IMG/VR virus record: IMGVR_UViG_3300025949_000022
Span: 1-64,000 of that record
Length of the DNA: 64,000 nucleotides
Reading direction: 5' to 3' (one strand)
Source of the DNA: a virus
Shown: piece after piece, positions 24,176 through 60,382 of the stretch
Layout: every line of letters starts with the position of its first letter
Numbering within the stretch: the first letter of the stretch is position 1
Program-made: the position numbers and the translations under genes
Notes under the pieces: generated by a model
Seen by the model: only the letters and a program-made list of their open reading frames with translations
Told to the model about the DNA's origin: nothing
Databases searched by the model: none

Positions 24176-27100
24176 TTATAATGCCCTTTGTTCTGTTTTT
24201 GGTTTTGCCTTTTTATTTGTGAAAGAACTTACACCAATTCCAAATTGTGAGGGTATAAGTACCTTTAATGAATTAGTTATACCGCCTACTTTATAAGCAT
24301 CGTAAAGGTCGGTAGCTGGTAATGGTATAAACTCCTGCGGAACATTTGGCCATAGATGATATGGTTGCCCTACCATGTCTTTACCAGCCATTAAATTTGC
24401 AGAACTCCCCACTATAGGGTTTAATTTCCCACGTAAAAAGCTAATTGCCGCGTCAAACCGTGTAGGCTTGCCGAATTTCCCGCTTGTCAGGCTATTTGGC
24501 TTCGTAGCCCCGGCAGGTACTTTTTGCCCTGTTATCTGCTGGGATAAAAACACAACATATTGCGTTAACCCGCCTAAAATATCGTATCGTGTATCGCCGT
24601 CCTTTATCTTTAAAAAATCAGAGCCTCGCGGGTCGGTAGAAACGCTTAATCCTGCCGCTTTTGCCATGCCAAGTATTACCGCTGCTGTAGCTAATGTCTT
24701 ACCGATATCTTTTGCCGCCAAAACTTTAGCTGATCGCGATAATCGCGGGTCACCCCAAAGATATAATGTTTGAATACGTGCCGCCATAAAACGCGGTGAA
24801 AATAATAAGTTGCTTAATATAGCGGGTTGTTTGCCACCAAGCCAGTCAGGTATGCTACCCCGGCCGGAAAGAACATTAACTACAGTTGCTAAATCCCTAA
24901 ACGCATCAGGGTTGTTTTTAAAGGTATAGCCGCGTTCTTGTAATTTAATGGCTTCTGATACGAATACCCCTGTTCTAATGGCGTTAAGGTACCCTGTATA
25001 CGCTCGTTCGGCCCCCTGATGTACTTTTCCTAATACAGGTATCTTTTCGAGCAGGTTAGAGGTGAATTGTTCTTCCCTTGCTAATAATTCAGGGTTGTTC
25101 TTTTCTGAAATATACAGCCCGCTTTGCTTCATTAAATCATATTGTGGCGATGTTTTTATATCTGAAAACCAATCCCGATATTTCTTTTCAGAAAACGTCT
25201 GCCCAAACATAGTTTTTAGGGCTTTTATAGCTTCCATAGGGTGTGCTACCGTTGGAATTAAACCCTGTCTTAGCACCGCCGAAAAGTCCAATGTGGCTTT
25301 AATAGCGCGTGGCAAAGAGGCTACATTTAATAGCACATCCTTTGTTTTCTCAATCTTACTGCGCTTGTCAAGTTCGCGCCTTGCTACATCTAGTTCGTAT
25401 TCGTATCTTAATTCATCCCGTTTTCTGCGAAGATCCCGCACTTCCTGGCTTTCTTCGGGCGGTAAGGTTTTTTCTGGCTTGTCAAACTCCTTCCGGTCTA
25501 TCTTGCCCTGAAACTCCTCGATGCTTTTTTGAAGTTGCGTTTTAGTCGCCCGTTCATTCTGCTCTTCATAGTATCCGTTTTCCTTGTCCAGTTCTTTCAG
25601 GCGTTTTCTTAACCCGTCTATTTTCTCATTCGCCGCTATTTTCTTAGCTTCGGGTAACTTCCTAAGCCCGTTTTCAGCATCTTCAATTTGGCTCAATAAT
25701 TTAGCCTCATTTTTTAGGATGCGTATTTTGTCCTGTAGCTCGCTTTTGGTAGCAGGAGCATTGTATTTACCACTGATAAGGTCGTGCATATCCTTATCGC
25801 TGATATCGTTTAACTCCAGTTCGTCTTTAATCCTGCGCACCACTTCGCCTAATTCAGTAATACCCTCTCGTGCTAAAGAGGTCACCATTTTTGCAACATA
25901 AGGCGCCGCTGCGCTAAGAAACTGCGCCGAAGCAGAAACCACGTCATTTAGTTGCCCGTTGGTACGCATAGCTTTCAGTTTATTGCTAAAATCTTCTGCT
26001 ATCTTTTTTCGCTCCTCTACAAATTCAGCGTGGGTTTTAGCCTTTGTCCGGGGCATTCTCTTTATCGCTTTTTCAGCTTTTAAACGCGCTATTTCAGCCT
26101 GTGATTCTTTTAACTTTTGCTCGTAGTCTTTATTGGCTTGTTCAAGCGACTGATATTTTTTAGTAACATCCGCCAATTCCTCTGGTGTTAGCTTATCGCC
26201 CTTTATATCGCGTTCCCTAACAATCATATTCTCTAAAGAATAGTTGTTATTCAGTTTGAATTTACCGCTGTTTAAGGCGCGTCCGGCGTCGCTTCTTGTT
26301 TGGTCGTTAGCATCTGCAACATCCTGAAAATCATTCAATGCGGCATCGCGTTTGGCGGTCAATTCGTCAAGTGTTTTGTCGCTTAATGTTGCACCTTCGT
26401 CCTGTAGCCGTTTATTTATTTCGATAATCTCGTCCGTCTTAGCCCCTACATACTTAGCTAAAATAGCGTTTTCAGTATCAGTTGCTACATGCTTTTCGGT
26501 CTTTATTTTATGTACCAAATCGTGGATATCGTAACCGTCTTTAAGTTTGGCATCTGCTTCGGCTTCAACAATTTCTCTGGTGCGTACACCGCCCTTATTG
26601 TCGCCTAAAGTGATATCAACCTTGTCGGCTTGCTCTCTTAAAGATTCTTTTTTCGATGAAACTGTCGGTTCTACTCCGGTTGGGTCGGATGGTTCTCTTT
26701 GTGGAGTTTTATTGCCCGTATCTTGTGGTTCGCCTGTTGAGGTGTCATTTTCGGGTTCTGATACAAGTCCTGTAGGTACTTCAGGTGTTCCGGCTTGATC
26801 TGATCGTCCGGATTGTTGGTATTCTTCGTATCTTTTTGCATCTTCTGGTGTGATTCCTAATTCTGTTGCAGCCTGATTATGTTCTTCTATTTGACGCGGG
26901 CTAAGTTCGCCAATTTTATTTGATTTTGCATCATTAATATGATTTTGTATATCTTCGCTCGTAAGCCCCTGTCGCCTAATAGACGAACCGCCTAATCCTT
27001 CAATTATTGGATAGTCGTCATTCTTATCCATTTCCATGACTTTATCAAGCAATCGTTTCGCTGGTGCGGTTTCATAATTGCCTTTAGAAATATCAGAAAC

Positions 27101-29176
27101 GGCTTTTCTTTTGTCGGCAGATGACATGCCTAAATCAATACGCGCGCTTGGGTCGTTCTCTTTAAAGTTTTCCGGTACGATTATACCATGAGTAATAGCG
27201 TCAATAGCTTTTTGCCTTAAAGGGTCAGTAGTTGCTACCGGATTATTTGCAGGTTCTTCATTAACTGGAACATCAGCAACCTTGTTATCTTCTGCGGTAG
27301 GCTGTTCCGGTGTTTGAGCAGGTACTTCCTGATTTGGTTGGGGTTGTTCATTTTTTGATGGGCGTTCTAAGGTTTCAAGGTCGTACCTGTCCTGTGGTAT
27401 TTCTTCCTTGACACCATTAACTGTTTTATAAAATGTTCCTTCATCTTCCTCTGTTCCTTTGGAGTAGGTTGAGCGTTTACCCGTTGCCAGTGTTCGTAGT
27501 TTATCATTAGCCTGGTCAATCTTATTTTGCAATAACTGTTCACCGGGGCTTGGTTCTTCATTAAAGGGCGCGGTTAGCCCGGTACGATATGCCTGTTGTT
27601 CGTCAAGTTGCTTTTGCAGATTGTCACGCCCTATTATTAAGTCAACGGCTTTAGTTGCCTTTTCTTCAGGAAGTCCTTTCGGGATGGATTTTGTTATAGC
27701 CGCTAATTTATCTACATGGTCATTTGTCGCGGCTATTTCTTCCGGCGTCCAACCAACCTGCTGCCCGTTTTCGGATATAAATTGTTTGGTTTTAGCAACA
27801 TTGGCATCCGAACTGTCTTTAATAAGGTTGTCAAGCACTACATTTTTATATTCGCTTAGCGGGGTGAGCTTTGATATATCACCCAAAGAGCCTACCGCGC
27901 CGAATAATGGCGCGGCTTTTAGTGTTTCACCCTCTTGATCGGCTAATGTTCCTAAACTTTCATTGAAAACAGGTTGATCGTTCGCCAAATCAACCCCTTT
28001 TTTTAAGGCAAAGTTTGATACATTGAGTGCCGAAAGGTCGGTGACCGCCTTTTTAGTGTTTTTAAGAAAGTTTACGCCACCTTGTAATGCTTTGTCTCCC
28101 CAATCCTTTGCTCCTTGTTTAAGCAGATCGGTAAAGCCCTCTGCGGTTATGTCTTTCCCAGCTGCTTCTTTAATAGCGTTCATGGTGATGTTTTTTACTA
28201 CATCGTCTTTTAATGAGCTACTAAGTGAATTGAATATACCGTGTCCTAAATCACCCATCAGCAACCCATTAACGCCGCCTGTCCCTAATATGAATGCTGT
28301 TTTAACTACAGGATTGATCTTGGCGCCGTTTTCTTCGGCCTTATCCATTATTTCCTTGCCCTGTCCCATCCCTTGCAGGTATAGTGTTGCGCCGCCAGTT
28401 CCTTCTGCTGCGGCTGCGGCTGGTAAAAACTCTGCCAATCCCCCGAGGTTAGCCATTGTTTTACTTTTCTCAACCTGATTTTCGCTTGTTTTGGACAGGA
28501 AATCAGTTGCTTTATCTGCTGAATTGAATGCCTGATCGAAATCGTGCGTATCCGTTAACCCAAGTCCTCTTTGTGAATTAGCTGTTAATTGAGCAAGGTA
28601 GGCCGCGCCCTTAACAACCTGTAATCCTCCTTTAGTAGCTTTTTGAGCCAAATAGGTTAGTCCGTTCTGTATTTTTCCGGGCAACGTTTGCGCATAAGCA
28701 TAGTCGCCTTGTTGCGATTGTGGCGTTTCGGATATGGTTTCGTTAGCGTGGCTGGCTACGGACTGTTGTGTTTGTTGGGTTAACGCTTTTTGTTCGTCAG
28801 GCGATAGTTGCTTCCAGTAATTCTGCATAGCCGATTGCCCTGATTTAACCCACGGTTCTTGTTGCGGCTGTGTGGGTTGTGCGGGTTCTTGCCCCGGCAT
28901 AAAAACACCTGAACTATGCTGTTGGGTATTTTGGAAAGGATTTAAGCCACTGCCAGATAAGTCCGCACCATTTGGCAAAGCGTTGCCGACTGGACTTTTT
29001 TTTTGACTATAGTCTATCTGGCTGTTATAATCAGGATATTTTGCAACGATCTTTTTTACAAGTTCGGCGTTATCAATGCTTGCATAATCAGGATATTTCG
29101 CCTTTATCTTAGCCGCAAAATCATCTACAGACAATTTAGGCTGTTCCTGTACTGGCGCGTCTGTGATTTCTCCCAT
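24176..29176 (-). CDS. very large phage protein, probably ejected internal virion protein (1666 aa)
   Basis: The N-terminus has two KYPDY motifs (residues 27-31 and 46-50) in DDFAAKIKAKYPDYASIDN and VKKIVAKYPDYNSQID. A Gln/Pro-rich linker follows, then long helical and coiled-coil regions. The last 350 residues (VFVSEAIKLQERGYTFKNNP, LSNLLFSPRFMAARIQTLYL) are of the type found in large polyvalent phage proteins (LPD-like). No nuclease or polymerase motif was found. Position between fibre and ring genes suggests it is packaged and injected with DNA. Confidence 0.7.
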   Translation of the reverse strand: MGEITDAPVQEQPKLSVDDFAAKIKAKYPDYASIDNAELVKKIVAKYPDYNSQIDYSQKKSPVGNALPNGADLSGSGLNPFQNTQQHSSGVFMPGQEPAQPTQPQQEPWVKSGQSAMQNYWKQLSPDEQKALTQQTQQSVASHANETISETPQSQQGDYAYAQTLPGKIQNGLTYLAQKATKGGLQVVKGAAYLAQLTANSQRGLGLTDTHDFDQAFNSADKATDFLSKTSENQVEKSKTMANLGGLAEFLPAAAAAEGTGGATLYLQGMGQGKEIMDKAEENGAKINPVVKTAFILGTGGVNGLLMGDLGHGIFNSLSSSLKDDVVKNITMNAIKEAAGKDITAEGFTDLLKQGAKDWGDKALQGGVNFLKNTKKAVTDLSALNVSNFALKKGVDLANDQPVFNESLGTLADQEGETLKAAPLFGAVGSLGDISKLTPLSEYKNVVLDNLIKDSSDANVAKTKQFISENGQQVGWTPEEIAATNDHVDKLAAITKSIPKGLPEEKATKAVDLIIGRDNLQKQLDEQQAYRTGLTAPFNEEPSPGEQLLQNKIDQANDKLRTLATGKRSTYSKGTEEDEGTFYKTVNGVKEEIPQDRYDLETLERPSKNEQPQPNQEVPAQTPEQPTAEDNKVADVPVNEEPANNPVATTDPLRQKAIDAITHGIIVPENFKENDPSARIDLGMSSADKRKAVSDISKGNYETAPAKRLLDKVMEMDKNDDYPIIEGLGGSSIRRQGLTSEDIQNHINDAKSNKIGELSPRQIEEHNQAATELGITPEDAKRYEEYQQSGRSDQAGTPEVPTGLVSEPENDTSTGEPQDTGNKTPQREPSDPTGVEPTVSSKKESLREQADKVDITLGDNKGGVRTREIVEAEADAKLKDGYDIHDLVHKIKTEKHVATDTENAILAKYVGAKTDEIIEINKRLQDEGATLSDKTLDELTAKRDAALNDFQDVADANDQTRSDAGRALNSGKFKLNNNYSLENMIVRERDIKGDKLTPEELADVTKKYQSLEQANKDYEQKLKESQAEIARLKAEKAIKRMPRTKAKTHAEFVEERKKIAEDFSNKLKAMRTNGQLNDVVSASAQFLSAAAPYVAKMVTSLAREGITELGEVVRRIKDELELNDISDKDMHDLISGKYNAPATKSELQDKIRILKNEAKLLSQIEDAENGLRKLPEAKKIAANEKIDGLRKRLKELDKENGYYEEQNERATKTQLQKSIEEFQGKIDRKEFDKPEKTLPPEESQEVRDLRRKRDELRYEYELDVARRELDKRSKIEKTKDVLLNVASLPRAIKATLDFSAVLRQGLIPTVAHPMEAIKALKTMFGQTFSEKKYRDWFSDIKTSPQYDLMKQSGLYISEKNNPELLAREEQFTSNLLEKIPVLGKVHQGAERAYTGYLNAIRTGVFVSEAIKLQERGYTFKNNPDAFRDLATVVNVLSGRGSIPDWLGGKQPAILSNLLFSPRFMAARIQTLYLWGDPRLSRSAKVLAAKDIGKTLATAAVILGMAKAAGLSVSTDPRGSDFLKIKDGDTRYDILGGLTQYVVFLSQQITGQKVPAGATKPNSLTSGKFGKPTRFDAAISFLRGKLNPIVGSSANLMAGKDMVGQPYHLWPNVPQEFIPLPATDLYDAYKVGGITNSLKVLIPSQFGIGVSSFTNKKAKPKTEQRAL

Positions 29177-29182
29177 TGTAAT

Positions 29183-30667
29183 TTAATTAAATATCCCTAA
29201 AGGGTCTTTATGCTTTGGTTGTGCCTGTTGCCCGTTAACTACGGGAAGATGTTTTTTACCCCCTAATGTTTGTAAGGATGATATGTCTACCTTTTCGCCT
29301 GTTAGCTGATTAGTTAACTCGTTAAGTTTTATGTTAGCGTTAGGGTCTTTAGGGTTAATCCAAACGGTATGTGCGGGTGAAACTTCTGTCCAGCTATTTG
29401 TAGAAGCATCCCACTTTTGTTTTGCAGGCACGCCGAAACCAATTTGCCCCGCAAGGTTACCTTTCCCTTTATTTATCAGAAGCGGCCCATCATAAGTGGG
29501 ATCAGCGGCTATTTTTGCTTTTAGCTCTTCCCCACTATTCGGCACACCTGTAAGCATATCTGTAATTAACTTTTGGCGGTAAATAGGTTGCGTATTCTTT
29601 TCCTGTTTATCTTTTTGCATCGCCAAACGCTGCTCTGCTAAACTTAAATTGGCTTCGGATAATGCTAATCTTTCATCACTTGTGTTTCTTAGTTTCTCCT
29701 GTCCTATGTTCGCATCAAGCCTATTAGCGAAGTCGGTATAAACCTTACCATACCCAGCATTTTGACGTTGTACTAATTCTGTCAGTTTGTCTTTTGCGTG
29801 GGGGTCTAATGGGTCAATCCCTGCGGCCTGTAATGTGGCAGCATAATGGGGTTGATTGGCATTTTGTATAATATGGTCGGCGATAGCATTTACTGTCGGC
29901 GCATCGGTTGGGTATATTACGCCCCCATGCCCATTTGGTTGTCCGCCAATATCACCTACATGGGGGTCAATGCCATTTTGCTGTAACATAGGTGCAAATT
30001 CAGGCTGCGACAATACTGTACGTGCCTGCGCTATATGTGCCCCCCTGTCGGGTGCTGTAATATTATAACCGTTAACCGTCTCCTTTTTAGCTACAGCATG
30101 GCCTAATTTTATCGCATCGTTCATGTCCAGGTTCCGTTCTATTAAATCAGGCGGCGGCGCGTAAAGGTTTCCTACGGGGTCTTTCTGATATTGCGTAAGC
30201 CAGTCTATACCCGCTTGTTTGCTTTCGGGGGTATAGTTTTTGCTTTTATCAGCTATCTGTGTAGCATAGGCAGTATGCCGTAAATTAGCTTCATGCGTGG
30301 AGTTGGCTACTGTGTTTAAATCGTTTATCCTTTGAACAAACTGTGGCTGTGTAAAAGGGTCTTGCCCTGTTTTTGTATGATAATCAGCCGCATCGTTTAA
30401 AACCTGATCGAATTTAGGTTGCAGCCAGTTGGTGTACTCATTGGCTATTTTTGGCGTTTTCTGCTCATAAAGGTGCTGTGCATATTGCGCATTAGCCTTT
30501 TGTTGTGCTTGTTGTATTGCCGCCGCATCATCCCTGCGTTGCTGTGCCTGCTCGTTGGCAAGTTGCATAAAATATCCTACCGTTCTGCTTTGAGGCAATA
30601 CGTAAGCTAAACCCTGTCCTTGCTGGGATTCATTACCGTCAAATCCACCTATGTCTTGTGCGTCCAT
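29183..30667 (-). CDS. putative internal virion protein (494 aa)
   Basis: The protein is Gln/Ala-rich and helical at residues 30-110 (ANEQAQQRRDDAAAIQQAQQ) and again near 320-360, with a Gly/Pro-rich middle. It resembles podovirus internal core proteins. It lies 6 nt upstream of the 1666-aa gene and 2 nt from the 234-aa gene, and the three probably assemble together. Confidence 0.6.
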   Translation of the reverse strand: MDAQDIGGFDGNESQQGQGLAYVLPQSRTVGYFMQLANEQAQQRRDDAAAIQQAQQKANAQYAQHLYEQKTPKIANEYTNWLQPKFDQVLNDAADYHTKTGQDPFTQPQFVQRINDLNTVANSTHEANLRHTAYATQIADKSKNYTPESKQAGIDWLTQYQKDPVGNLYAPPPDLIERNLDMNDAIKLGHAVAKKETVNGYNITAPDRGAHIAQARTVLSQPEFAPMLQQNGIDPHVGDIGGQPNGHGGVIYPTDAPTVNAIADHIIQNANQPHYAATLQAAGIDPLDPHAKDKLTELVQRQNAGYGKVYTDFANRLDANIGQEKLRNTSDERLALSEANLSLAEQRLAMQKDKQEKNTQPIYRQKLITDMLTGVPNSGEELKAKIAADPTYDGPLLINKGKGNLAGQIGFGVPAKQKWDASTNSWTEVSPAHTVWINPKDPNANIKLNELTNQLTGEKVDISSLQTLGGKKHLPVVNGQQAQPKHKDPLGIFN

Positions 30668-30669
30668 TA

Positions 30670-31374
30670 TTAGTAAGGATTAGGTATTTGATAAGGTACA
30701 ACATTGCCTGATACGGGATATGGTGAGGTGTTTTGATAGCCTCCGCCTGCTGCTGATAAGTAAGGATTCCCATTCACCTGTCCCATTGTTTGTACAGTTG
30801 GCGGATTGCTGGTTGCCGCCCCTTTTGCATAACCGATTGCGGCAGAACCGATATCGTCAAGTCCACTATATAAGTTTTGCTGTCCTGCTCCGTACATTGA
30901 AGCGGCGAGGTTTGCAGTCCGTAAATAGGGCTGTAAGGTATTGTTATTATATAATTTACCCCTCCATCCTGCTTGATTTTGTAAAGCGCCCTCGTATTGG
31001 CCTAAAGCACTTTCTTTATACTGTGCCTCCTGTGCGTTTAACTGGTTAGTTGCCGCATTACTTCCCTGTCCGATACGGGTTGCTAAATCCAATATATCGC
31101 CTCCCGATGTTGCGCCTTGTGAACCACGATAAAACTGCGAGGCGGCATTTCTATTAATGTCGTTACGCGCATTAGCATCGCCCGGCATACCGTTCGTATA
31201 ATTACGTGCGGCCAAATCTGTTCCCAACTGAACTTCGGCAGGCATTTCTTCAGGCGTAAAAATATTATTCTTAGCCATACGTTTTGCATCTGCGGCTTGG
31301 TTAGCGCCTTTGATAGCCTTATAAGCTCCTAACCCTGCTGAAACTACTGCTGCTCCGGCGAATACGAATGCCAT
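30670..31374 (-). CDS. putative internal virion/cargo protein (234 aa)
   Basis: The N-terminus (FAGAAVVSAGLGAYKAIKGANQAADAKRMA) is a glycine-rich hydrophobic helix followed by a basic region, as in podovirus ejection proteins that enter the membrane. The remainder is Asn/Gln/Gly-rich with helical stretches (NAATNQLNAQEAQYKESALG). It overlaps the end of the cupin-like gene by 31 nt. Confidence 0.65.
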   Translation of the reverse strand: MAFVFAGAAVVSAGLGAYKAIKGANQAADAKRMAKNNIFTPEEMPAEVQLGTDLAARNYTNGMPGDANARNDINRNAASQFYRGSQGATSGGDILDLATRIGQGSNAATNQLNAQEAQYKESALGQYEGALQNQAGWRGKLYNNNTLQPYLRTANLAASMYGAGQQNLYSGLDDIGSAAIGYAKGAATSNPPTVQTMGQVNGNPYLSAAGGGYQNTSPYPVSGNVVPYQIPNPY

Positions 31375-31826
31375 AACTCCTCCTGTTTTTTATCTCCCAA
31401 AAATGGGTTTTCTCTTTTTTCTATAATATCTTCCTCTACTAAATCGGCAGCTTTTTCTATAGCCTCCGGCGTGTCGTTTTCAGGCATCCTTTCGGTAGGG
31501 TGAAATGTGATTAGCATCGTGTCTGTTATCGTCCTGAAAACACGTCTCGTCCCCGGTTCTGTTACCCCTCTTTTATATCCGATTACACGTTCCCATCCTT
31601 TGCCTTTTAAGTAAATATCAACAACCCCAAACGCGATAACATATTGGTGTTGCGTCTTGTGGCATTTACTGCTAATTTCTACCCCGGCAGGCATAAATAA
31701 TTGACGTGAATAAAGCCCTTTAGTGAACTCATGCACCACCGGCAAGTCTATCTGTGGTCGCGAAGCAATCTCTGCCTGCACCATGTCTAAAACTTCGTCT
31801 TCAGTATATGTTCTTTCTGTTGCCAT
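31344..31826 (-). CDS. cupin-like phage virion-associated protein (160 aa)
   Basis: GLYSRQLFMPAGVEISSKCHKTQHQYVIAFGVVDIYLKGKGWE and TEPGTRRVFRTITDTMLITFHPT form a cupin-type beta barrel with His/Gln residues at the metal-site positions. This small family recurs in phage structural modules; its job is unknown. The acidic helical tail (AADLVEEDIIEKREN) may bind a partner. Confidence 0.7.
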   Translation of the reverse strand: MATERTYTEDEVLDMVQAEIASRPQIDLPVVHEFTKGLYSRQLFMPAGVEISSKCHKTQHQYVIAFGVVDIYLKGKGWERVIGYKRGVTEPGTRRVFRTITDTMLITFHPTERMPENDTPEAIEKAADLVEEDIIEKRENPFLGDKKQEELWHSYSPEQQ

Positions 31827-31845
31827 TAGTCCCTAAAGTTATACA

Positions 31846-32301
31846 TTATTTACCACTTTTTATTTTTGCAATTGCCGCATCATAAGCATTTAAATTTGTT
31901 CCGTAACTGGTTTGATTTAATTGCGCTACAGGGTATTTATGCGATGATGTTTTACTGCCTAACCACCCATCGGCAGGGGATAAGTCCGGCATGATATCCT
32001 CCTCGGTTTTTGCATCAGGAACCACGGCAGGATTAGCTTTCCATTTGTTGACTAATTGCGCCCTGTAATCAAGTAAATCTTTCTGCACCTGTGGCACTTG
32101 GTCGTATGTTAATGTAAAGTGCGGATTCTGCGCTTTGTAGCTGTCAAACATCTGCTGACTTAACTTCGTATCGCGGTTATCCAGTGCCGGATTGCCTTTC
32201 ATTCCTTTAGCCTGAAGATAGTCAATGTATGCGTTCCACTGCGCCCGCTGTTCGGTCGTTAATGGGTGTGATTGCATGGCCGCTGCTTTTACATAAGTCA
32301 T
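31846..32301 (-). CDS. conserved phage protein of unknown function (151 aa)
   Basis: QQMFDSYKAQNPHFTLTYDQVPQVQKDLLDYR and EDIMPDLSPADGWLGSKTSSHKYP are segments I recognise from other Bacteroidota phage structural modules, without a named function. The first 100 residues are helical. It lies between the cupin-like gene and a tail protein gene. Confidence 0.65.
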   Translation of the reverse strand: MTYVKAAAMQSHPLTTEQRAQWNAYIDYLQAKGMKGNPALDNRDTKLSQQMFDSYKAQNPHFTLTYDQVPQVQKDLLDYRAQLVNKWKANPAVVPDAKTEEDIMPDLSPADGWLGSKTSSHKYPVAQLNQTSYGTNLNAYDAAIAKIKSGK

Positions 32302-32302
32302 A

Positions 32303-33226
32303 TCATAAACTCCTTTCTGTATCTATAAAATATGTCTCGATTGAACTGATTTCCGCGTAAGTAATGTCATCGCATTGCAGATCCACAATTAGCCAGCCCC
32401 CCTGCATCTTTCTGCCACCAAATAATGCACTCAAACGTCTTTGTACGGGATCGCTTATTGTCGCAAAATTGGGATCGTTGACATCAGATAAAATATCGCT
32501 CCAGAGCTTGTTATCAATTAGTTTAAAATTCTTGGCTTTTAATTCTGTTAACATTCCATTTGGGAACTGGCTGCTTGGCGCTGTTTGTATTGAGGGCATA
32601 TACCAATTGCCTACTGCATCTAATCTAAAGTTGTAGAATATCTTTTCCTTTTGGTACTCTGCGTTAACGATTAAAGTTATTTTAGGTGAATACTGTACTC
32701 CGTAAAGATTCCCTTGAATTGGATTAGTATTATGAACCCACAATGCCCCGTCTTTCCAACTTATCAGGCTGTCGATAAACTTGGTCATCGTATCGTTTTC
32801 GTACTCATAGTCAGAAGCCCATTTATTCGCTTTGTCAAAGAATGATATTACCTGTGCCGATTGCGGGCCTGTCAATAAATCATAAAACGATAATGCGCTA
32901 ATGCGCAAATTGCCGTCTGAAAAGAACTTTAAAACAGTGGTGCCTGTAAGCGTTATTGTTTCTGTAAAAGTTCCGTTAGTTGTCCTGTTCGTTCCTGTTA
33001 CCGTGCCGGCATATAATTGCACACCACCGCTTGTTAATTGGTCTACCGTAAATGAAAAAACATATTGCCTGCCTATAACTAATCCAAAATTTGTCAGTCC
33101 AATAATAAAACCACTATTACAAGCGGAGTGAACCGCATACTTACCGCTTATCTCCCAGCCCGTATCGGTCGCCGCCACCGGCGCGTTTACATATCCTGTT
33201 GTATTTTGAACTATTGTAAGTGCCAT
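32303..33226 (-). CDS. putative tail protein (307 aa)
   Basis: The ATG at 33226 (MALTIVQNTTGYVNAPVAATDTG) overlaps the stop of the tail hub gene as TAATG, so I prefer it over a longer in-frame start at 33316. The N-terminal 120 residues look like a carbohydrate-binding-module-type beta sandwich. The rest (VISFFDKANKWASDYEYENDTMTKFIDSLI) is mixed and seen in podovirus neck or tail genes. Function is inferred from position. Confidence 0.6.
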   Translation of the reverse strand: MALTIVQNTTGYVNAPVAATDTGWEISGKYAVHSACNSGFIIGLTNFGLVIGRQYVFSFTVDQLTSGGVQLYAGTVTGTNRTTNGTFTETITLTGTTVLKFFSDGNLRISALSFYDLLTGPQSAQVISFFDKANKWASDYEYENDTMTKFIDSLISWKDGALWVHNTNPIQGNLYGVQYSPKITLIVNAEYQKEKIFYNFRLDAVGNWYMPSIQTAPSSQFPNGMLTELKAKNFKLIDNKLWSDILSDVNDPNFATISDPVQRRLSALFGGRKMQGGWLIVDLQCDDITYAEISSIETYFIDTERSL

Positions 33227-36200
33227 TATGGGTTTATGTTTATGGTAAATACATGATTGGCGCTCATATCTACGCCAGTAAAGGTAATATACCCTGCAGT
33301 CATGCCTCCTGTCCATACACCAGCTATCGGGCCATACGCGGATGCGGTCAATGCCGAACTGGACGGCATATAACCGTTGCCCACATAGAATATCACGGTA
33401 GACGCTGCGGTTCCTGCTGCGGTATTATCGGTTACATTGCCCAACGGCGGAATATTTATAGATTGCGGATAATTCGTGCCATCAATTTGAATTGACGGCG
33501 ATTGTATACCCTTAATAGTGCTATTATTGATAATATTGAAAGTATTTGCAGGCGCTGGTATCGTGCATGCTCCTGTGTTTAATATTGTAGGGATATAATT
33601 AGTATTTACCACCCTGTTTGTTAATGTGGCCCATACTCCACCTATTTTTTTGTATAGAATATCAGATAGTCCATTATACCATATATCGCCGTCGCTTCCA
33701 CCGCTTGGGGACACGTCCGTATTTGGATTTGACGTAATTGTAGCGGTGTTCTGAACAATAGCATCGGGCGAAATATTCCGAATATTCGGCATTATTCGAC
33801 CTGTCAGTGCGCCGGTTGTCAGGTTTTTTTCATCGATTATATTCCATCCTTGTTGCCCCGTATTAGCGCCGCCAATCGTTTCGCAATAATTTGTAGTGGC
33901 ATCTATTACCCATGTTAAAATCGGGTCAGGCGCTTTGATAATATTGAAACAGAGCTTAATTACCGGTGTAAGCCCCGCGCCTGCGGGTAACGTCCCCTGA
34001 AACGTAAAGAAGTCTGCACCAACCGTGCTTGTTCCCGTAATTTGTATTTGATTGGCTACTACGGTAGCCGTGCTGTGTGCGGGTTGTGCTACGATAGCCC
34101 ATGTTGTGCCGCCGGGGTATAATGCCAAAGTAGTTTGCCAGTCGTTTGTATAAAAGTCACCATTAAAAATGTAGTCTATGTAAGATGGAATTGCCCATAA
34201 ATCTTCGCCGTTAAGCCTGTCGCTCGCACCGGTAATCTTTACGTTATTCCTTGCTACTTTGGTTAAAATCGCCCGCGCTTTTTTATCAAAAAGATATAGT
34301 TCTGAAATGGGTATAGAGCCATCCTGCGCTATCCTGATAAAAACCCCTGAATTTGCCGAAGCAAACTTTTGATACGATCCGTCATCAAGCCAGCTTTCAG
34401 GGTTATTACCTATCCCGCCTTCCCATGATGAGTATTGAAGTTCATTAAGTAACTCGCTGGAGGTAGTTAGTAAACTGTTACCCGAATTATCCTGTATTAG
34501 CCTTTTATTTACGGGTGTCCATGTTGTTTTTAAGGGCTTAAAGATAAATAGATAATCCCCTCGCATCCGTGTAAGCGTTATTGCACCGTACTGATCGTTG
34601 TAATCTTTTCTGTCAAGGTTGTCAAAGTTATTCAACCCGTTTATACGTGTACCCTGAATATAGTTTTTTGAGAACCTTACCCGCTGTGTAAATAATACCT
34701 CTCCAAATCCCTGATCCTGCGGATATACCCGTCCTGTTCCATAAAGGTTTGAGATATAGAAATCGGAGAAGTTCGGGTCGCATATTTGATCTATAATAAC
34801 CTGTGGATTCGGGTTTTGATTATTGGTCGGCATCGCCCTGTTGCGCACATACGCATCACCTTGCGAGATTTGTACGATACAAGGGGTAGTAACAGGGTTT
34901 AATGGGTCTTGGGTTTGTATATTGCCTACATACGCCCCGTTGGTAATTGGGTATTTCTGCTGAAAGTCTGAAAAGTTCAGGTAACCCACATTTCCGATGT
35001 TTTGCTCAGGGCGGTATATTTCAACTAAAATCTGTACGCCAGCAGGGAATGAATAAGTACTCGGCGGGTTTTTGATACGCACTATTCCGCGTGTATCCCT
35101 GAATGAATAATTAGGATATATGGTTGCCGCGCCTGTGCCACCAGCGTAGTTTACATTCGGCTGTAAGGGAAAATCCAGCACATACGATCCGCCTGATACG
35201 CCTGTTATTAATCTTTGAACATCATTGATAATAATATATTTACCTACGTGGTCTAAATCAGGGCCTTTGTCCGGTGTAACATTATTGCTTGCTGGGAAGG
35301 GAACGGTAATGTTTGCCGCCACAAGTTCTATAACATCGTCCGAATAGCTTAATACCTCTGTTTCGTAATAAGGGGTATATAGTGTCGCTGGTACCGTTGA
35401 TTCATTGGATATCAGCCGTAGCCTGTCCCCTTTTTTAAACTCGTATTTAAGTATAGCATCGGGATGAATAAGTTGATAAGTGAATAAGCTGCCTACGATC
35501 AAATCAAGGTAGGTATCTTCATTAGCAACCTCAACCACGTTAACTTGCTGGATTAATAATTGAATAAACGTAGCCGTGTCGTTCGTCCTTACAATAGAAT
35601 AATATTTAGCCCATGACGGCGGTAAAGAGGTAATGGTAAGGGTATGTATGGGTTGCTGTAATCCTATTGGCGTTATTCCATCAGCGCCGTATTCTGTTTG
35701 AAAAGGCGTCCTGATAAGAAACGAATCGGTTGTGTACGCATTTGAAGTTACGCCGTCATCGTCATAAAAGATAATGCCGTACTTTTCAGTAGCGCCCATC
35801 TTTTTAGTATTTATAGATAGCCCATTATCCAATAAAGTGGAATAATTTACAGCGGTTACATTTGTGCTAAATACTATTGCATTATGCCCCTCATGGGCCT
35901 CTATGGTAAAATCCCATGATGCATTGCCACCTGCTCCGCTTTCCCCGCTAACCGCGCCTGTGCCAACCGCATCAATAGTTCTAAGCCATTGTTTAATGCG
36001 GGATGCTACTGTGCTGGCGGTATCTGAATTTGTTGCAGTATATGAAAAGGGCGAAACGCCGTTTCCTCCGGTTGCGCTGATATAAAATACATTCCCTTTT
36101 TTAACATCAGAACCTACTAAAAAGTGTGTAACAGTTGTCCACCACGAGTTAAATAACCCGCCGCTTTCTGTTGAACTTGTTAACGATGAAGTAAAAGCAG

Positions 36201-51544: not shown

Positions 51545-52480
51545 TTATAAAGTTAATAAACTATTTTGCCTTAGTAAATTTATTTTTGACAACAGTAAAT
51601 TTTCCTCAACATATCCTACCGCTTCGTAGTGAGAAGAACCGTTTGGAAACTCTGTCATTGGATGCACATAAGGCAGGTTAAATTCAGGCAAATTATTACT
51701 GCCAAAATATTCAGCGCCAGCCCATGTTGCCTCAAGAAAACTTATGTTGCTCTTTCCCCTGTTTAATGGCGTGTCGCATAACGGGAAAATCATAGCTTTA
51801 GGCTTTAACCGTTTTAAGTAATCGAAGTATTGCATTATCGGCATACACTCTACCGAATAGTAGTTACCTATACCTGCTTTATCCAACGCCATTTCTAACT
51901 TAATAAACCTATGACCTATAAAGTAGAAATCGAGGTTGTTATTATCGGCTATCATCGCCATTATCTGATCAAAGTTTTCGTAAACATCAGCCTCATGCGT
52001 CATACCTCCGCGCCATACTACTTTATTGCTTGTGGTGTTGGCGGCGCTACATTGTCCCAATATATAATCGTTAAGCGCATTAGGAATTACTATGCCGCGT
52101 CCGAATGATAAAGCAATATTATTTGTGCTTACCCAAACCTCATCGGCGGTATCAATCATTTCTAAAATAATATACTTCTGTTCTTTGTATTGCTGGTACA
52201 CCGGGGAGTAAGCATCAACGTGCAAAACATCGTCGTCATATTCTACTATTACCTTAATTCCGCACTTCTTTGCAAGCCTAATCATTTTCATGTGATCGGG
52301 CGTACATGGACGTTGCATAATCAAGATATCAACAGACGCTAAATCCCATTGTGTAATGTGACCGAAATGGGAAATATCACGTAGATGAATGTCGGGATGA
52401 TTGATAAATGGAAGCACCCCAGTAGTGCGGTAAAAATCGGTATTGCTCCAGATAGTTTGTGAATAATAGAGTACTTGCAT
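51545..52480 (-). CDS. glycosyltransferase (GT4/GT-B-like, 311 aa)
   Basis: KVIVEYDDDVLHVDAYSPVYQQY, EVWVSTNNIALSFGRGIVIPNALND and VWRGGMTHEADVYENFDQIMAMIADN are typical of GT-B fold glycosyltransferases found in phages, in which the last is the nucleotide-sugar site region. The C-terminal KSNISFLEATWAGAEYFGSN gives the acidic E-x7-E-like motif. It may glycosylate a virion protein or DNA. It heads a run of glycosyl- and methyltransferases. Confidence 0.8.
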   Translation of the reverse strand: MQVLYYSQTIWSNTDFYRTTGVLPFINHPDIHLRDISHFGHITQWDLASVDILIMQRPCTPDHMKMIRLAKKCGIKVIVEYDDDVLHVDAYSPVYQQYKEQKYIILEMIDTADEVWVSTNNIALSFGRGIVIPNALNDYILGQCSAANTTSNKVVWRGGMTHEADVYENFDQIMAMIADNNNLDFYFIGHRFIKLEMALDKAGIGNYYSVECMPIMQYFDYLKRLKPKAMIFPLCDTPLNRGKSNISFLEATWAGAEYFGSNNLPEFNLPYVHPMTEFPNGSSHYEAVGYVEENLLLSKINLLRQNSLLTL

Positions 52481-52544
52481 AATGAAATAAATAATATATC
52501 TTTACGTGCAGTTTAAGATATTATTCATTTCAATTCATTTCATT

Positions 52545-52766
52545 ATGGCAGCAACTAACATGATCTCCCTATCGGTTCAACAAATAGGGACAACACCACC
52601 ATCAAAACTACATCGTATTGGGGTAGCCTCAATACTTGATGTGTTAGATTTTACAGACACTAATTTCCCATTTATTAAGTCTGTAGTCTTTACCAGTAAT
52701 CCCGTTTTATCACGGTTATATGTTAACGAATCGGCATCCGCTATTGAGACAACAATTAACAGTTAA
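52545..52766 (+). CDS. rightward small protein (73 aa)
   Basis: The ATG at 52545 (MAATNMISLSVQQIGTTPPS) is preferred over one at 52506 since a TATCTTTA-type box lies just before the latter. The beta-rich product has no recognised family. It is a single rightward gene inside the modification cluster, ending a few bases before the stop of the leftward gene at 52772. Confidence 0.5.
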   Translation: MAATNMISLSVQQIGTTPPSKLHRIGVASILDVLDFTDTNFPFIKSVVFTSNPVLSRLYVNESASAIETTINS

Positions 52767-52771
52767 AACAC

Positions 52772-53140
52772 TTATTCTCCCTCGCTGCCTGAATCGGCGG
52801 GGGGGTTTATTAAATCGCTCGGCACTTCAACTAAAACACCATAATAAACCTTGCTGTCTGTGAACCTGATATGTTCGATACTGCCAGTAGTTTCACCTAC
52901 CGTAACCGTTTCTCCAATTTTGTACTTAGCTGGTAATTCCATTACATTCTTTTTATGTCCTAACATTGGGTTTTCAACTACAAATATATCGTTACTTTCA
53001 AAGTGTTTAATCTGCCCGTTACTATTTAAGCTAACTACCCAAATCGAATTTATATTTATTGAATAATCAATAACTAATAAAGCCCATCCTTTTCCCAATG
53101 GTGTTTTCACTTCGATAGGTGGATTGAGTTGGATAATCAT
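52772..53140 (-). CDS. hypothetical phage protein (122 aa)
   Basis: The opening IQLNPPIEVKTPLGKGWALLVIDYS followed by IWVVSLNSNGQIKHFESNDIFVVENP is a beta-barrel-like pattern I recall from other phage genomes without a name. The end is acidic and Gly/Ser-rich. It starts within the last codon of the methyltransferase upstream. Confidence 0.6.
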   Translation of the reverse strand: MIIQLNPPIEVKTPLGKGWALLVIDYSININSIWVVSLNSNGQIKHFESNDIFVVENPMLGHKKNVMELPAKYKIGETVTVGETTGSIEHIRFTDSKVYYGVLVEVPSDLINPPADSGSEGE

Positions 53141-53847
53141 TTCCGCCGGTAAACCATAATGTGAATCACATTTGCTACGAACTCAAACTCTTTAGCTATG
53201 TCAGTCTGTAACCATTCATCTAAAGCCTTGCATACGGGTTCAATGCCTTGAAAGTAACCAAATGGCTGATGTGTTGAACAAGCGGCGTCATCAACGACTA
53301 AAAAGCCACCTGATTTCACCATTGGGGCGTAGGTAGTTAGGTCAGCAAGCGCACCTTCGTAACTGTGATCGCCGTCAATGTATGCCACATCGTATTCGCG
53401 CCTTGCGCGTTCAATTACCTCTTCGTCTGCAGAATATCCTTGCACTATCAGGGGTAGTTTAATATAAACAAGGTCGCTGTTAAACTTTTTGTAAATCGTG
53501 TTTAGATGCTCCCAATAATCATCGCCAGTCCACCCAGTTCCAACCCCGTTCATCGGAGAAACGCCCCACACGTTGGCAAATGGTTTTAGTTTTTGCCACA
53601 AGCTCAATGTAGCCCCTTTAAACACACCAACCTCTAACATATTCGGGTCGTCTGGCAACTCGTCACAAATAAGCTTCCATAACCACCAAAAGCTGCGTTC
53701 ACCAAAGCCAAACACATTTTGCTCCACCCAATCGCGGTGTTCTTTAAGAACCGCGTCGGCATTTACCTTTTCGCAAAAGCTTTCATGTATCTGCTTATGG
53801 TAGTCGGGTTCGTCTACCCACGAATTTTTTAGGTCGGTTAGTGTCAT
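53137..53847 (-). CDS. class I SAM-dependent methyltransferase (236 aa)
   Basis: LEVGVFKGATLSLW (about residues 70-83) is the SAM-binding motif I. YDVAYIDGDHSYEGALADLTTYAPMVKSGGFLVVDDAA is the methyltransf_24/TylF-type acidic motif and post-motif strand. The N-terminal 65 residues are extra. Substrates in this family are often sugars or peptides. It lies beside glycosyltransferase genes, so methylation of a sugar added by them is plausible. Confidence 0.85.
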   Translation of the reverse strand: MTLTDLKNSWVDEPDYHKQIHESFCEKVNADAVLKEHRDWVEQNVFGFGERSFWWLWKLICDELPDDPNMLEVGVFKGATLSLWQKLKPFANVWGVSPMNGVGTGWTGDDYWEHLNTIYKKFNSDLVYIKLPLIVQGYSADEEVIERARREYDVAYIDGDHSYEGALADLTTYAPMVKSGGFLVVDDAACSTHQPFGYFQGIEPVCKALDEWLQTDIAKEFEFVANVIHIMVYRRK

Positions 53848-54062
53848 TTCTTTATCTCCCTTGTTATGATTTCTACTATTCGTTCCACATGTTCATTATA
53901 AACACCAACTGGATAAGACGGGTATTTGATTACTATAGAAATATCGTTAATCATTACGGCTATTTCAATCGGAAATCTTAGCTGTTCATTTATTTTTTGT
54001 GGTTTTTCTTTAAAGAGGCTCATAGCTTTATCAATTTTTCCCGTAAATGGTTTTAAATCCAT
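53844..54062 (-). CDS. hypothetical protein (72 aa)
   Basis: The first part is basic and the second has EIAVMINDISIVIKYPSYPVGVYNEHVERIVEIITREIKK, a beta-alpha pattern. No family is recognised. It overlaps both neighbours (4 and 32 nt). Confidence 0.5.
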   Translation of the reverse strand: MDLKPFTGKIDKAMSLFKEKPQKINEQLRFPIEIAVMINDISIVIKYPSYPVGVYNEHVERIVEIITREIKK

Positions 54063-54270
54063 CTTTTATATACCAAAACTTCCCGTCTTTATTAACTTTC
54101 ATGTGCCTAATTTTATGCCGAAATGGAAATTTAAAATTCCAATAATATTCATAGTGGTAATCAAAATTTACAAATACATGCGTTGGTTCCTTAAATCCAT
54201 ATGGATTATTGTAAGCCATATCGTTAAACGGTAAATTCACGTAATGTCTATATGCTTCTTGCCAGTTCAT
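54031..54270 (-). CDS. hypothetical aromatic-rich protein (79 aa)
   Basis: The sequence is unusually rich in Tyr, Phe, His and Asn (FVNFDYHYEYYWNFKFPFRHK). It is overlapped by 32 nt with the gene downstream and 4 nt with the PLOD-like gene. No function can be assigned. Confidence 0.5.
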   Translation of the reverse strand: MNWQEAYRHYVNLPFNDMAYNNPYGFKEPTHVFVNFDYHYEYYWNFKFPFRHKIRHMKVNKDGKFWYIKDGFKTIYGKN

Positions 54271-54935
54271 AATTTCATTAAGTTATCAAGTTTCTCATCA
54301 ACAGTGCGCCCATTTTTATGCACGAATATTGGTTCGTTGCCTAATATTTGGAGGCGTCCGTTTTCATACCCGTATTCGTTTTCGTGGATGAAAGAATGTG
54401 AGTTAAAAAGTATTTGGTTACAATCAATCTCAATAGGCCGGTATCTTTCCCTTTGGTCTTGCGTTAAATATACCATAGTTGCCCAAAGCTGGTCGTCATT
54501 TTCAAAATCAACAGGCAAAGAATCGATTAACACGATAAACCAGTCCGATTTGGCGTAATACAATCCACTATTTACAAATCTAAACGGAGAGGTATTATCT
54601 AAATCGGGGGCGGCTTTGTAAAACTTATCAATTTGCGGAATTGGCCAGCATCCTTTTTCAGCACTGAATATCACGCGCGTATGAAAGTTAAATCCGTTTA
54701 GCTTCTCCCTAAACTCATCCTCGCCTCCAAGCGCCAGCACATCAAAAGCATCACAAAAAATAAACTCTGTAACATCAGGGTTGGATTTAAGATAATTGTA
54801 CGTTTCGATAAGTTTAGTTCCGAAGCCTTTCCATTCTGCCTCTATCACTACGTAATCCCACTTATTAGCTACTAATGAGCGGATAAGTGGGCCTGCGTGT
54901 TGAGGGGAGTTGGTTACGGTTATTACTTTAAGCAT
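54267..54935 (-). CDS. PLOD-type glycosyltransferase (222 aa)
   Basis: EFIFCDAFDVLALGGEDEFREKL, RVIFSAEKGCWPIPQIDKFY, FRFVNSGLYYAKSDW and ENDDQLWATMVYL form the complete core of the procollagen lysyl-hydroxylase/galactosyltransferase GT domain. The CDAFDV motif takes the D-x-D place and DDQL is the downstream acidic pair. Such viral GTs glycosylate proteins or DNA. It lies in the modification cluster between two methyltransferases. Confidence 0.8.
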   Translation of the reverse strand: MLKVITVTNSPQHAGPLIRSLVANKWDYVVIEAEWKGFGTKLIETYNYLKSNPDVTEFIFCDAFDVLALGGEDEFREKLNGFNFHTRVIFSAEKGCWPIPQIDKFYKAAPDLDNTSPFRFVNSGLYYAKSDWFIVLIDSLPVDFENDDQLWATMVYLTQDQRERYRPIEIDCNQILFNSHSFIHENEYGYENGRLQILGNEPIFVHKNGRTVDEKLDNLMKL

Positions 54936-55054
54936 AAAAGAATTATATCTATAATTTTAACTATGATTATGTAAAACACCATTAGCCCTACGTGATTATT
55001 AAGGTAGTTATTGAATATTCGCCAATAGTCAGGTTTATTTACTTTTTCTGCCAT
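54923..55054 (-). CDS. small membrane protein (43 aa)
   Basis: ATG 55054 reads MAEKVNKPDYWRIFNNYLNN then HVGLMVFYIIIVKIIDIILLC. It is a C-terminal-anchored single-span protein. It overlaps the end of the methyltransferase upstream by 16 nt and the start of the PLOD-type gene by 13 nt. Confidence 0.5.
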   Translation of the reverse strand: MAEKVNKPDYWRIFNNYLNNHVGLMVFYIIIVKIIDIILLCLK

Positions 55055-55644
55055 AATCCCTTTTTTAAGCCCATTTTTACTTCAGTCCAGCCAAGTTGTT
55101 TAAACAATTTTTGAACGGGCTTTATGTCTACGAAATCTTCTGTCACGTCATCTACGCAAATCGTTGCACCGCTATCCATGCGTTTATCAAACCAAGTAAT
55201 TTCATTATACAAAGCTGCGACCGTATGTGTTCCGTCCAAATGCACCATAGCATATTTATTACATCTTACAGATTCCAGTTCATATAATTCAACTCCGTGC
55301 GGGTACAAAAGAAAATATTCCGTATCTGTCATTCTCATTGGCATCCATTGCACGTTCTTATCTAACACATAAGCCGACATAGCTGCCATACAACGCTTTG
55401 CCATGTCGTTTGTATAATCTAACCTGCACGGCCCATTTGGTTCGCGCCCAGTGTACAATATCGATCCGTACGGGTCTATTCCAATTACAGTACTTCCCGG
55501 CCGATGTTCACAAGCGGCATCAACAATATATTTAGTCCCCATCCCCATGCGTACGCCAACCTCAACAAGTAAGCCCTCAACATCTTTCGATAACTCTACC
55601 GCTTCGGTTAAGAACTCATATTCACCACTGTCGCCTTCGATCAT
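55039..55644 (-). CDS. class I SAM-dependent methyltransferase (201 aa)
   Basis: LLVEVGVRMGMGTKYIVDAA is motif I. VIGIDPYGSILY gives the ribose-binding acidic residue. MVHLDGTHTVAALYNEITWFDKRMDSGATICVDDVTEDF matches the TylF/methyltransf_24 motif DGxHxYxxxxxD...GG-I-xDD. It is a second methyltransferase of the same broad type as 53137-53847 but not closely similar to it. It overlaps the GT2 gene by 4 nt. Confidence 0.85.
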   Translation of the reverse strand: MIEGDSGEYEFLTEAVELSKDVEGLLVEVGVRMGMGTKYIVDAACEHRPGSTVIGIDPYGSILYTGREPNGPCRLDYTNDMAKRCMAAMSAYVLDKNVQWMPMRMTDTEYFLLYPHGVELYELESVRCNKYAMVHLDGTHTVAALYNEITWFDKRMDSGATICVDDVTEDFVDIKPVQKLFKQLGWTEVKMGLKKGLWQKK

Positions 55645-56441
55645 AATTCAACTTTTAATGGTAGTGTTCCTTCAATATACCCCTTATGTAACTCATGGTA
55701 TTTACCCCAGGCAGCAGCAGCCAAACTTTCCTTAACCTGCGAATATTCTGTCCCGCCAACATCAATGTGGTCGATGTCTATATGTGGTAAAAACCCGTTC
55801 CAAAAGCCACCCAACAATGAACGCAAACTCATCAGTGTATCGTCAAAACCGTAAACACCGGCCTGAACAAAATAACCCACCGTATCAAGCAACCGCCAGT
55901 TCAACATCGTACATGTTCCCATAACATCTCTTGATCTCTCAACCACTATCCAACGTTCGCCCGGTTCGTGCGGCAGCATCACAAATTCACTCCTAAAATC
56001 AGGGTCAGGATCATTAGGCGTCTGCCTTAAATCTTTACGCTTTAAACCCAAAACACCAATAGTATTATCGCGCTCAATAGCGGCCTCCATTTCATCAACC
56101 CATCCCGTATAATTAATAACAACATCGTTGTCAATTTTTATGCAGTGTTCCGATGGCTTTCGCAACTTCAGGCCTTCGTTTATTCCGCGCGCTGTACCAA
56201 TGTTTTCGGGTAGGGTAATAACAGTAGGTCTAATCACAGTCGGTTCCGGATATGTCCACACCATACCAAACACACAATCGCGCAATATTGCTTTTGTTAC
56301 CTCGCAACTACCGTTATCAATCACCACTAATCTATGCTTATCCCAATCCACCGTTTTACGCAACCCCTCTAACGTGCGTTTCGTATATTCCGAACGTCCA
56401 TTATCCTCTGTATCGTGGCAACACATTATGATTAGTGACAT
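55641..56441 (-). CDS. GT2-family glycosyltransferase (266 aa)
   Basis: KHRLVVIDNGSCEVTKAILRDC is the nucleotide-sugar-binding start of GT-A enzymes. PENIGTARGINEGL and CIKIDNDVVINYTGWVDEM contain the D-x-D motif (DND), and GTCTMLNWRLLDTVGYFVQAGVYGFDDTLMSLR is the acceptor-side motif with the catalytic acidic residues. The family is GT2. It should transfer a sugar to a protein, DNA or glycan, and starts the modification operon just downstream of a small protein gene. Confidence 0.88.
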   Translation of the reverse strand: MSLIIMCCHDTEDNGRSEYTKRTLEGLRKTVDWDKHRLVVIDNGSCEVTKAILRDCVFGMVWTYPEPTVIRPTVITLPENIGTARGINEGLKLRKPSEHCIKIDNDVVINYTGWVDEMEAAIERDNTIGVLGLKRKDLRQTPNDPDPDFRSEFVMLPHEPGERWIVVERSRDVMGTCTMLNWRLLDTVGYFVQAGVYGFDDTLMSLRSLLGGFWNGFLPHIDIDHIDVGGTEYSQVKESLAAAAWGKYHELHKGYIEGTLPLKVEL

Positions 56442-59403: not shown

Positions 59404-59619
59404 TTAGTTAAGATCGATTATGTGGCGCAACTTATCAGGGCCATTAGCTTCATCGTATCTAGCTTCTAAGATTGGGAATTGCTCAAAAGCCTCGTCAACT
59501 GAATCAGCTCTTACATTTAACCATGATGAAATATTATCGATCTGCTTTTTAAGCCCGGCAATACTTGGATAGGCCCTTAGCTTTCCGCTTTTATCCCTTG
59601 CAATGATGTACTTTTTCAT
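59404..59619 (-). CDS. hypothetical protein (71 aa)
   Basis: The product, MKKYIIARDKSGKLRAYPSI and LKKQIDNISSWLNVRADSVD, then a polar tail, is a small alpha/beta protein of unknown family. It is the gene directly downstream of the three-way-junction RNA at 59667-59747, so that element lies in its 5' leader. Confidence 0.55.
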   Translation of the reverse strand: MKKYIIARDKSGKLRAYPSIAGLKKQIDNISSWLNVRADSVDEAFEQFPILEARYDEANGPDKLRHIIDLN

Positions 59620-59666
59620 TTTAAAGTGGTTTGGTTAGTTATTTTTTTTGATGTTATGTTCTCTTA

Positions 59667-59747
59667 CTGCCAAATCCCCATGACTTTCAGGGTCTATGGG
59701 GTAGCATACATTCACCGTTGTAGCGGCTTCGATGCTGATATTGGCAG
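59667..59747 (-). ncRNA. candidate three-way-junction RNA element
   Basis: The minus strand folds as a closed three-way junction with perfect stems. P1 is CTGCCAA (59747-59741) with TTGGCAG (59673-59667). P2 is AGCAT (59736-59732) with ATGCT (59707-59703), containing CCG/CGG around loop CTACAA. P3 is CCCCAT (59701-59696) with ATGGGG (59681-59676), containing GAC/GTC. Junction strands are only 1-4 nt. It sits between a stop (59769) and a start (59619), as a riboswitch or leader would. A palindrome GCTAAG-A-CTTAGC (59751-59763) precedes it. I do not recognise a known riboswitch. Confidence 0.55.
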
Positions 59748-59768
59748 ATTGCTAAGACTTAGCATAAC

Positions 59769-59996
59769 TTATACAGTTTCTTTACTGGCCTTTTCTAATA
59801 ATTTGCCATATTGAGTACCGAGGGTGAACATGAATTTTTCGTCCGGGCTTTCAAATATAAATTCGCTTTGGTTTGGTGATAACCTATTTTTCTTTACGAT
59901 AATATCGGCGCCGGTTTCTTCTTCAAACATTTCAATTGCTTCTGAAAGCTTGGCTGCATAATTGTTGTTGAGGGTGATAATTACTGATGAGTTCAT
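59769..59996 (-). CDS. hypothetical protein (75 aa)
   Basis: The product (MNSSVIITLNNNYAAKLSEA, KNRLSPNQSEFIFESPDEKFMFTLG) is alpha/beta with no recognised family. Its start lies in a 23-nt leader identical to that of the gene at 60134. Confidence 0.6.
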   Translation of the reverse strand: MNSSVIITLNNNYAAKLSEAIEMFEEETGADIIVKKNRLSPNQSEFIFESPDEKFMFTLGTQYGKLLEKASKETV

Positions 59997-60016
59997 TTTT
60001 GCTAAGTTTTAAATTG
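59994..60016 (-). repeat. identical leader repeat, copy 1
   Basis: A 23-nt sequence, reading CAATTTAAAACTTAGCAAAA then ATG on the minus strand, is shared exactly with 60344-60366. It includes the start codon. The ACTTAGC part recurs in the palindrome at 59751-59763. Confidence 0.7.
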
Positions 60017-60034
60017 TTAATATTCTCTTTTTAC

Positions 60035-60091
60035 TGCCTTAACCTCAAGCCTTGTGAGCGTTGAGGTGGCAGACCCTGATACGTATCAGGG
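60035..60091 (-). promoter_or_regulatory. two adjacent stem-loops in the leader of the 59769 gene
   Basis: CCCTGATACGTATCAGGG (60091-60074) is a perfect 18-nt palindrome. Next to it TGCC-ACCTCAA (60071-60061) pairs with TTGAGGT-tta-GGCA (60048-60035). No gene fills the interval. They may form RNA hairpins or bind a dimeric protein. Confidence 0.5.
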
Positions 60092-60346: not shown

Positions 60347-60366
60347 TTTTGCTAAGTTTTAAATTG
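60344..60366 (-). repeat. identical leader repeat, copy 2
   Basis: This is an exact copy of 59994-60016, again with the start codon of the following gene inside it. Confidence 0.7.
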
Positions 60367-60382
60367 CAATTTTAAATTCTTA

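What the first reader, a model, noticed from the sequence alone, without database searches (positions are those of the whole stretch)
59667..59747. Riboswitch-like three-way junction in a phage early operon
Stems of 7, 5 and 6 bp, with inner extensions, close a compact junction with very short joints, exactly between a stop and the next start. It fits the shape of a ligand-binding or protein-binding leader and matches no class I know.
Basis: seen in the sequence. Interest (0 to 1): 0.65.

Follow-up and report, generated by a model that had tools for sequence, protein, structure and literature searches.

The report
New phage RNA leader family

Summary
The three-way junction at 59747..59667 (minus strand) is in the sequence as described and folds better than shuffled DNA. 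Related phages show that it belongs to a wider family. The family core is a 5' hairpin (P0), then a two-part hairpin (P1 and P2, with a 3-4 nt bulge on the 3' side), then a nearly invariant tail GUARAAGAC. About 15 copies occur in nine related phage records, and P1 and P2 keep pairing through many two-sided base changes. The window copy is an outlier: the side arm that makes it a three-way junction is absent from most copies. No Rfam family matches. In eight copies the P1 foot ends exactly 17 nt before an ATG. Downstream genes are unrelated (ribbon-helix-helix-like, DNA methylase, several unknown), which argues against a metabolite riboswitch. The most likely role is a cis-acting translational leader. 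A put-like antiterminator, an mRNA processing site and a recombination linker remain open. Both window copies lack the 17-nt spacing, so they may work differently or be relics. Function is inferred only.

The parts
59750..59764 (-). W1 hairpin P0, TGCTAAGTCTTAGCA
   Evidence: Exact in G001, G004 and G011 as well, once per record; changed in step elsewhere (read by eye)
59667..59747 (-). W1 body: P1 arms 59747..59741 and 59673..59667, P2 59701..59676
   Evidence: Fold z -4.0; family model match E 0.005
59703..59736 (-). W1 side arm that makes the three-way junction; absent from most other copies
   Evidence: MFE; comparison of copies
59650..59666 (-). W1 tail TAAGAGAACATAACATC; the place where other copies have ATG reads AAA here
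   Evidence: Comparison
59404..59619 (-). Downstream gene of W1, 71 aa, unknown; a 55% identical homologue in G004 is not next to the element there
60074..60091 (-). W2 hairpin P0, CCCTGATACGTATCAGGG
   Evidence: Sequence; fold
60025..60073 (-). W2 body P1/P2 (foot at 60034) and tail TAAAAAGAG; second copy in the window
   Evidence: Model match (the model was built with it), fold with P0 z -4.3
59769..59996 (-). Gene between the two copies, 75 aa, unknown; its last codons AAAGAAACTGTATAAG are shared with an unrelated gene in G001

Best explanation
The feature is a copy of a phage cis-acting RNA family. It is transcribed as part of a polycistronic mRNA (inferred) and folds into P0 plus a bulged P1/P2 hairpin (shown by covariation). 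In typical copies that hairpin sits directly against the 5' edge of the translation initiation region of the next gene: its foot lies 17 nt before the AUG, followed by an A-rich tail with A at -3 and -6 (shown in the sequences). The fold most likely sets the rate of translation start of the downstream gene (inferred), either by docking at the upstream edge of the 30S subunit or by binding a phage or host RNA-binding protein that opens or blocks that site. In the window a side arm was added to copy W1 and the ATG position is lost, so W1 and W2 may be displaced or relic copies left by gene exchange.
For: Two-sided changes in P1 and P2: 6 of 11 pairs in a sequence-only alignment of five copies, 7 of 11 among 18 model matches. 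Copies G408, G409 and G410 were found by tail pattern alone and then match the structure at E 1e-7 to 5e-6. Tail GTARAAGAC is kept while stems diverge. P1 foot to ATG is 17 nt in 8 copies, 18 and 19 in two more, before unrelated proteins. Bacteroidetes ribosomes favour A at -3 and -6 and low structure from -20 to +20 (PMC6847099), which is where the stem ends.
Against: W1, W2, G001b, G007b and G011 do not have the 17-nt spacing. G408, G409 and G410 were found with a pattern that fixes the ATG distance, and four of the other 17-nt copies precede related RHH-like genes, so independent cases are few (G001c at 17, G007c at 18, G004b at 19), and these are weak model matches. No expression data. No partner protein identified.
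Confidence: 0.48

Rival explanations
1. A put-like antiterminator: the nascent RNA binds RNA polymerase in cis and makes it ignore terminators further down the operon.
For: Same gross shape as HK022 putRNA, about 70 nt in two stem-loops (PMC9378689); found in a phage, gene-independent, and P0 and P1 are separated by a single nucleotide in several copies.
Against: Two to three copies sit inside gene clusters rather than just after a promoter; P0 varies and the linker runs from 1 to about 12 nt; the most conserved part is the tail before an ATG, which put does not need; the model finds nothing convincing in the HK022 stretch fetched.
Confidence: 0.18
2. An mRNA processing or stability element: the paired hairpins mark a cleavage site or protect transcript ends between genes.
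For: The element fills intergenic gaps directly after stop codons and lies between unrelated genes.
Against: Does not explain the conserved tail or the constant distance to the ATG in many copies.
Confidence: 0.15
3. A gene-exchange linker: a conserved boundary sequence at which genes are swapped by recombination, with the fold secondary.
For: W and G001 share a 37-nt stretch at 95% identity running from the end of unrelated upstream genes into P0; the G409 homologue of the G001 gene continues for about 40 more residues; neighbouring genes differ in almost every phage.
Against: Recombination at DNA level would keep sequence identity, yet P1 and P2 sequences diverge while pairing is kept. Linker use may be a by-product.
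Confidence: 0.1
4. A metabolite riboswitch with the three-way junction as ligand pocket.
For: Compact fold close to a gene start.
Against: Unrelated downstream genes, variable loops, the junction present only in the window copy and weakly in G408 and G410, no Rfam match.
Confidence: 0.04
5. A DNA site: P0 is a palindromic operator for the ribbon-helix-helix-like protein encoded downstream in several phages.
For: P0 is a near-perfect palindrome and identical in several phages; RHH-like genes follow in G001, G003, G004 and G007.
Against: The window and G011 have the same P0 but no RHH homologue was found; P0 in W2 and G007 is a different sequence; G409 has a pair (T-G) that is allowed in RNA but is a mismatch in DNA. 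Would not explain P1/P2.
Confidence: 0.05

Closest known systems
HK022 putRNA (putL, putR), phage antiterminator RNA
   Same: Phage RNA of about 70 nt made of two adjacent stem-loops with bulges, acting in cis if the analogy holds (PMC9378689)
   Different: No sequence similarity found, intergenic and repeated rather than promoter-proximal, variable linker, conserved tail and constant spacing to an ATG
Phage translational operator hairpins (for example the MS2 coat-protein operator and the T4 gp32 and RegA sites; from own knowledge)
   Same: Structured RNA at the edge of a ribosome binding site
   Different: Those control one gene or a fixed set through a known protein; here the same fold precedes unrelated genes and no protein is identified
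Bacteroidetes Kozak-like start region (PMC6847099)
   Same: A at -3 and -6 and an unstructured stretch before the AUG
   Different: Ordinary start regions carry no conserved folded element upstream
Metabolite riboswitches with three-way junctions (from own knowledge)
   Same: The window copy has a three-way junction in a leader position
   Different: The junction is not conserved in the family and downstream genes share no pathway

Membership tests
Any Rfam 15 family | Score at or above the family's gathering threshold | tested here: not met
   No match for the window, none up to E 10 for the element; for L019 and L020 only a sub-threshold wcaG match elsewhere
HK022 putRNA | Two adjacent stem-loops, about 70 nt | tested here: met
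   Shape of G001a, G004a, G011 and W2; shape only
HK022 putRNA | Sequence similarity to put | tested here: inconclusive
   Family model on HK022 24000-34000: only a chance-level match, inside IS903. put itself was not aligned
HK022 putRNA | Read-through of terminators in cis via the RNA polymerase zinc-binding domain | not testable with these tools
   Needs a transcription assay
Riboswitch | Conserved aptamer core shared by copies upstream of functionally related genes | tested here: not met
   Downstream products unrelated and loops variable; the side arm is not conserved
Riboswitch | Ligand-dependent structural change | not testable with these tools
   Needs in-line probing
Conserved structured RNA (general) | Compensatory base changes beyond control level | tested here: met
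Translational leader | Constant position relative to a start codon | tested here: inconclusive
   17 nt in 8 of 15 copies, but three were selected by that spacing and several share a gene; window copies differ

The most novel reading that the evidence does not exclude
A new class of phage-borne, gene-independent translation-start module: a folded RNA that docks on the upstream face of Bacteroidota ribosomes, which do not rely on Shine-Dalgarno pairing, and thereby gives phage mRNAs an initiation signal of their own.
Probability: 0.15. Interest if true: 0.85.

Novelty: new variant of a known kind. Interest (0 to 1): 0.55.

Why it matters
Few structured regulatory RNAs are known from Bacteroidota phages. 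This one has clear covariation, occurs one to three times per phage, and in many copies keeps a fixed distance to the start codon of unrelated genes. Bacteroidota ribosomes do not use Shine-Dalgarno pairing, so a conserved fold at the edge of the initiation region gives a concrete, testable case of how phages might mark start sites or tune translation there.

Tried and rejected
Coding explanation: a 38-codon open frame runs through W1 (59751-59635), but no shared frame was seen in other copies and the stems covary. Rfam: nothing. Close relatives of the neighbouring proteins in viral contigs: none by peptide patterns; relatives came through the terminase. Pattern hits L029 and L031 (terminase genes), L044-L046, L096-L120 and nearly all of L121-L171 have no structure match, and the best of the last set (L152, L133, L139) read through as coding sequence. 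Host genomes: weak matches in 3 of 395 Bacteroidota genomes, judged chance on inspection, and none in 395 more at E 0.005 (strict filters, no positive control, so absence is weak evidence). Named phages and plasmids: no meaningful DNA match. A distant Elemovirus relative has none. The G005 hits (24065, 24188) lack the tail and sit in a 700-nt gap without genes; kept apart as doubtful. A covariance model including P0 was considered but not built because the alignment misplaced P0 in two rows. REP or transposon-type hairpins were considered and dropped because there are only one to three copies per phage; an associated transposase was not searched for.

Full report
WHAT IS THERE. The whole gap between the genes gives z -4.5. 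The opposite strand also folds (z -3.1). The window is part of a 75,103-bp IMG/VR phage record with a tyrosine integrase, a terminase and a portal protein. Rfam has no match.

RELATIVES. The terminase led to related records. A DNA search of those found conserved fragments at both ends of the element. Reading them showed a simpler element: hairpin P0 (CTGCTAAGTCTTAGCAG), then CTGCC-A-GCGCA..TGCGC-TTAA-GGCAG and similar, then GTAAAAGAC and shortly after an ATG. Following the RHH-like downstream gene gave copies in G003 and G007 with different stem sequences. A second copy in the window, 60091..60025, appeared on inspection.

FAMILY MODEL. A covariance model of P1/P2 and nine tail bases from five copies found further copies in whole phage records (contexts): G007b (E 3e-8), G004b, W1 (E 0.005), G001b, G007a, and the weaker G007c and G001c, which score at chance level and were accepted by eye for their tail, stem and ATG position. 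A tail-only pattern then gave G408, G409 and G410, which score E 1e-7 to 5e-6 for the structure. In all there are about 15 copies in nine records: G000 (window), G001 with its near-duplicate G002 counted once, G003, G004, G007, G011, G408, G409 and G410. G005 is doubtful.

COVARIATION. On the sequence-only alignment of five copies 96.4% of cells pair and 6 of 11 pairs show changes on both sides; the score is 0.518 and slid controls reach at most 0.109. On 18 model matches 93.1% pair and the score is 0.363 against 0.118 in shuffles (this alignment is fitted to the structure and includes some chance hits). G.U pairs number 9 and A.C only 1, which supports the strand. P0 also changes in step: one pair is T-A in most copies, T-G in G409 and C-G in G003, and W2 has an unrelated palindrome; this was read by eye and not counted by a tool.

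THE WINDOW COPY. W1 keeps P0, P1, P2 and most of the tail. Between the P1 5' strand and P2 it has a 34-nt side arm (59736..59703). G408 and G410 have an 11-nt insertion with a possible 3-bp hairpin at that place, and G001c and G007c also have extra bases there. The junction is therefore mainly a private extension and not the family's signature. At the position of the usual ATG W1 reads AAA, and the next gene starts 47 nt from the stem foot; W2 has 37 nt.

SPACING AND FUNCTION. The P1 foot lies exactly 17 nt before an ATG in G001a, G001c, G003, G004a, G007a, G408, G409 and G410, 18 in G007c and 19 in G004b. Caveats: G001a, G003, G004a and G007a precede related RHH-like genes, and G408, G409 and G410 were found with the ATG distance fixed. 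Unrelated genes at 17 to 19 nt found without that constraint are G001c, G007c and G004b. Products include RHH-like proteins (one with a weak, sub-threshold ParD match), a C-5 DNA methylase and several unknowns. Bacteroidetes ribosomes favour A at -3 and -6 and low structure from -20 to +20 (PMC6847099). The strict copies carry those A bases, and the stem begins at the upstream edge of that stretch. This is the basis for the translational reading. It is inference.

ALTERNATIVES. The two-hairpin shape resembles HK022 putRNA (PMC9378689), but position and tail differ and the HK022 stretch shows no convincing model match. mRNA processing and a recombination linker remain possible; W and G001 share a 37-nt stretch running from the ends of unrelated genes into P0. 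A riboswitch is unlikely because the genes are unrelated and the loops vary.

DISTRIBUTION. No copy was found in samples of 395 and 395 Bacteroidota genomes beyond chance-level matches (strict filters, no positive control), nor in named phages or plasmids. The family seems confined to this group of uncultured phages as far as these collections show. Whether it has been described in a paper outside the library searched is not known; the searches made found no description.

Noticed in passing
L070:3993-4699 (G005:C1 about 23993-24699): About 700 nt without a gene in a related phage, holding two long hairpins similar to P1/P2 (4065-4114, 4188-4242) but without the tail; possibly a larger non-coding RNA.
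   Followed up: partly
window 59997-60018 and 60347-60368, minus strand: Nearly identical short leader AATTTAAAACTTAGCAAAAATG before two adjacent unrelated genes.
   Followed up: no
window 59766-59784 and L019:1520-1540: Unrelated upstream genes in the window phage and in G001 share the same last codons (AAAGAAACTGTATAAG) running into P0, while the G409 homologue of the G001 gene is longer: looks like a gene-exchange junction at the element.
   Followed up: partly
L049:11712-11833 (G007:C1 31712-31833): Two copies of the element in tandem, the first followed by ATG TAA.
   Followed up: no
L083:2464-2492, minus strand: A P2-like hairpin without P1 and tail upstream of another gene.
   Followed up: no
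window 51545-56441, minus strand: A block of genes that by eye look like glycosyltransferases and methyltransferases, next to the terminase.
   Followed up: no
window 4847-6100, minus strand: Tyrosine integrase (Pfam PF00589), so the phage is probably temperate.
   Followed up: partly
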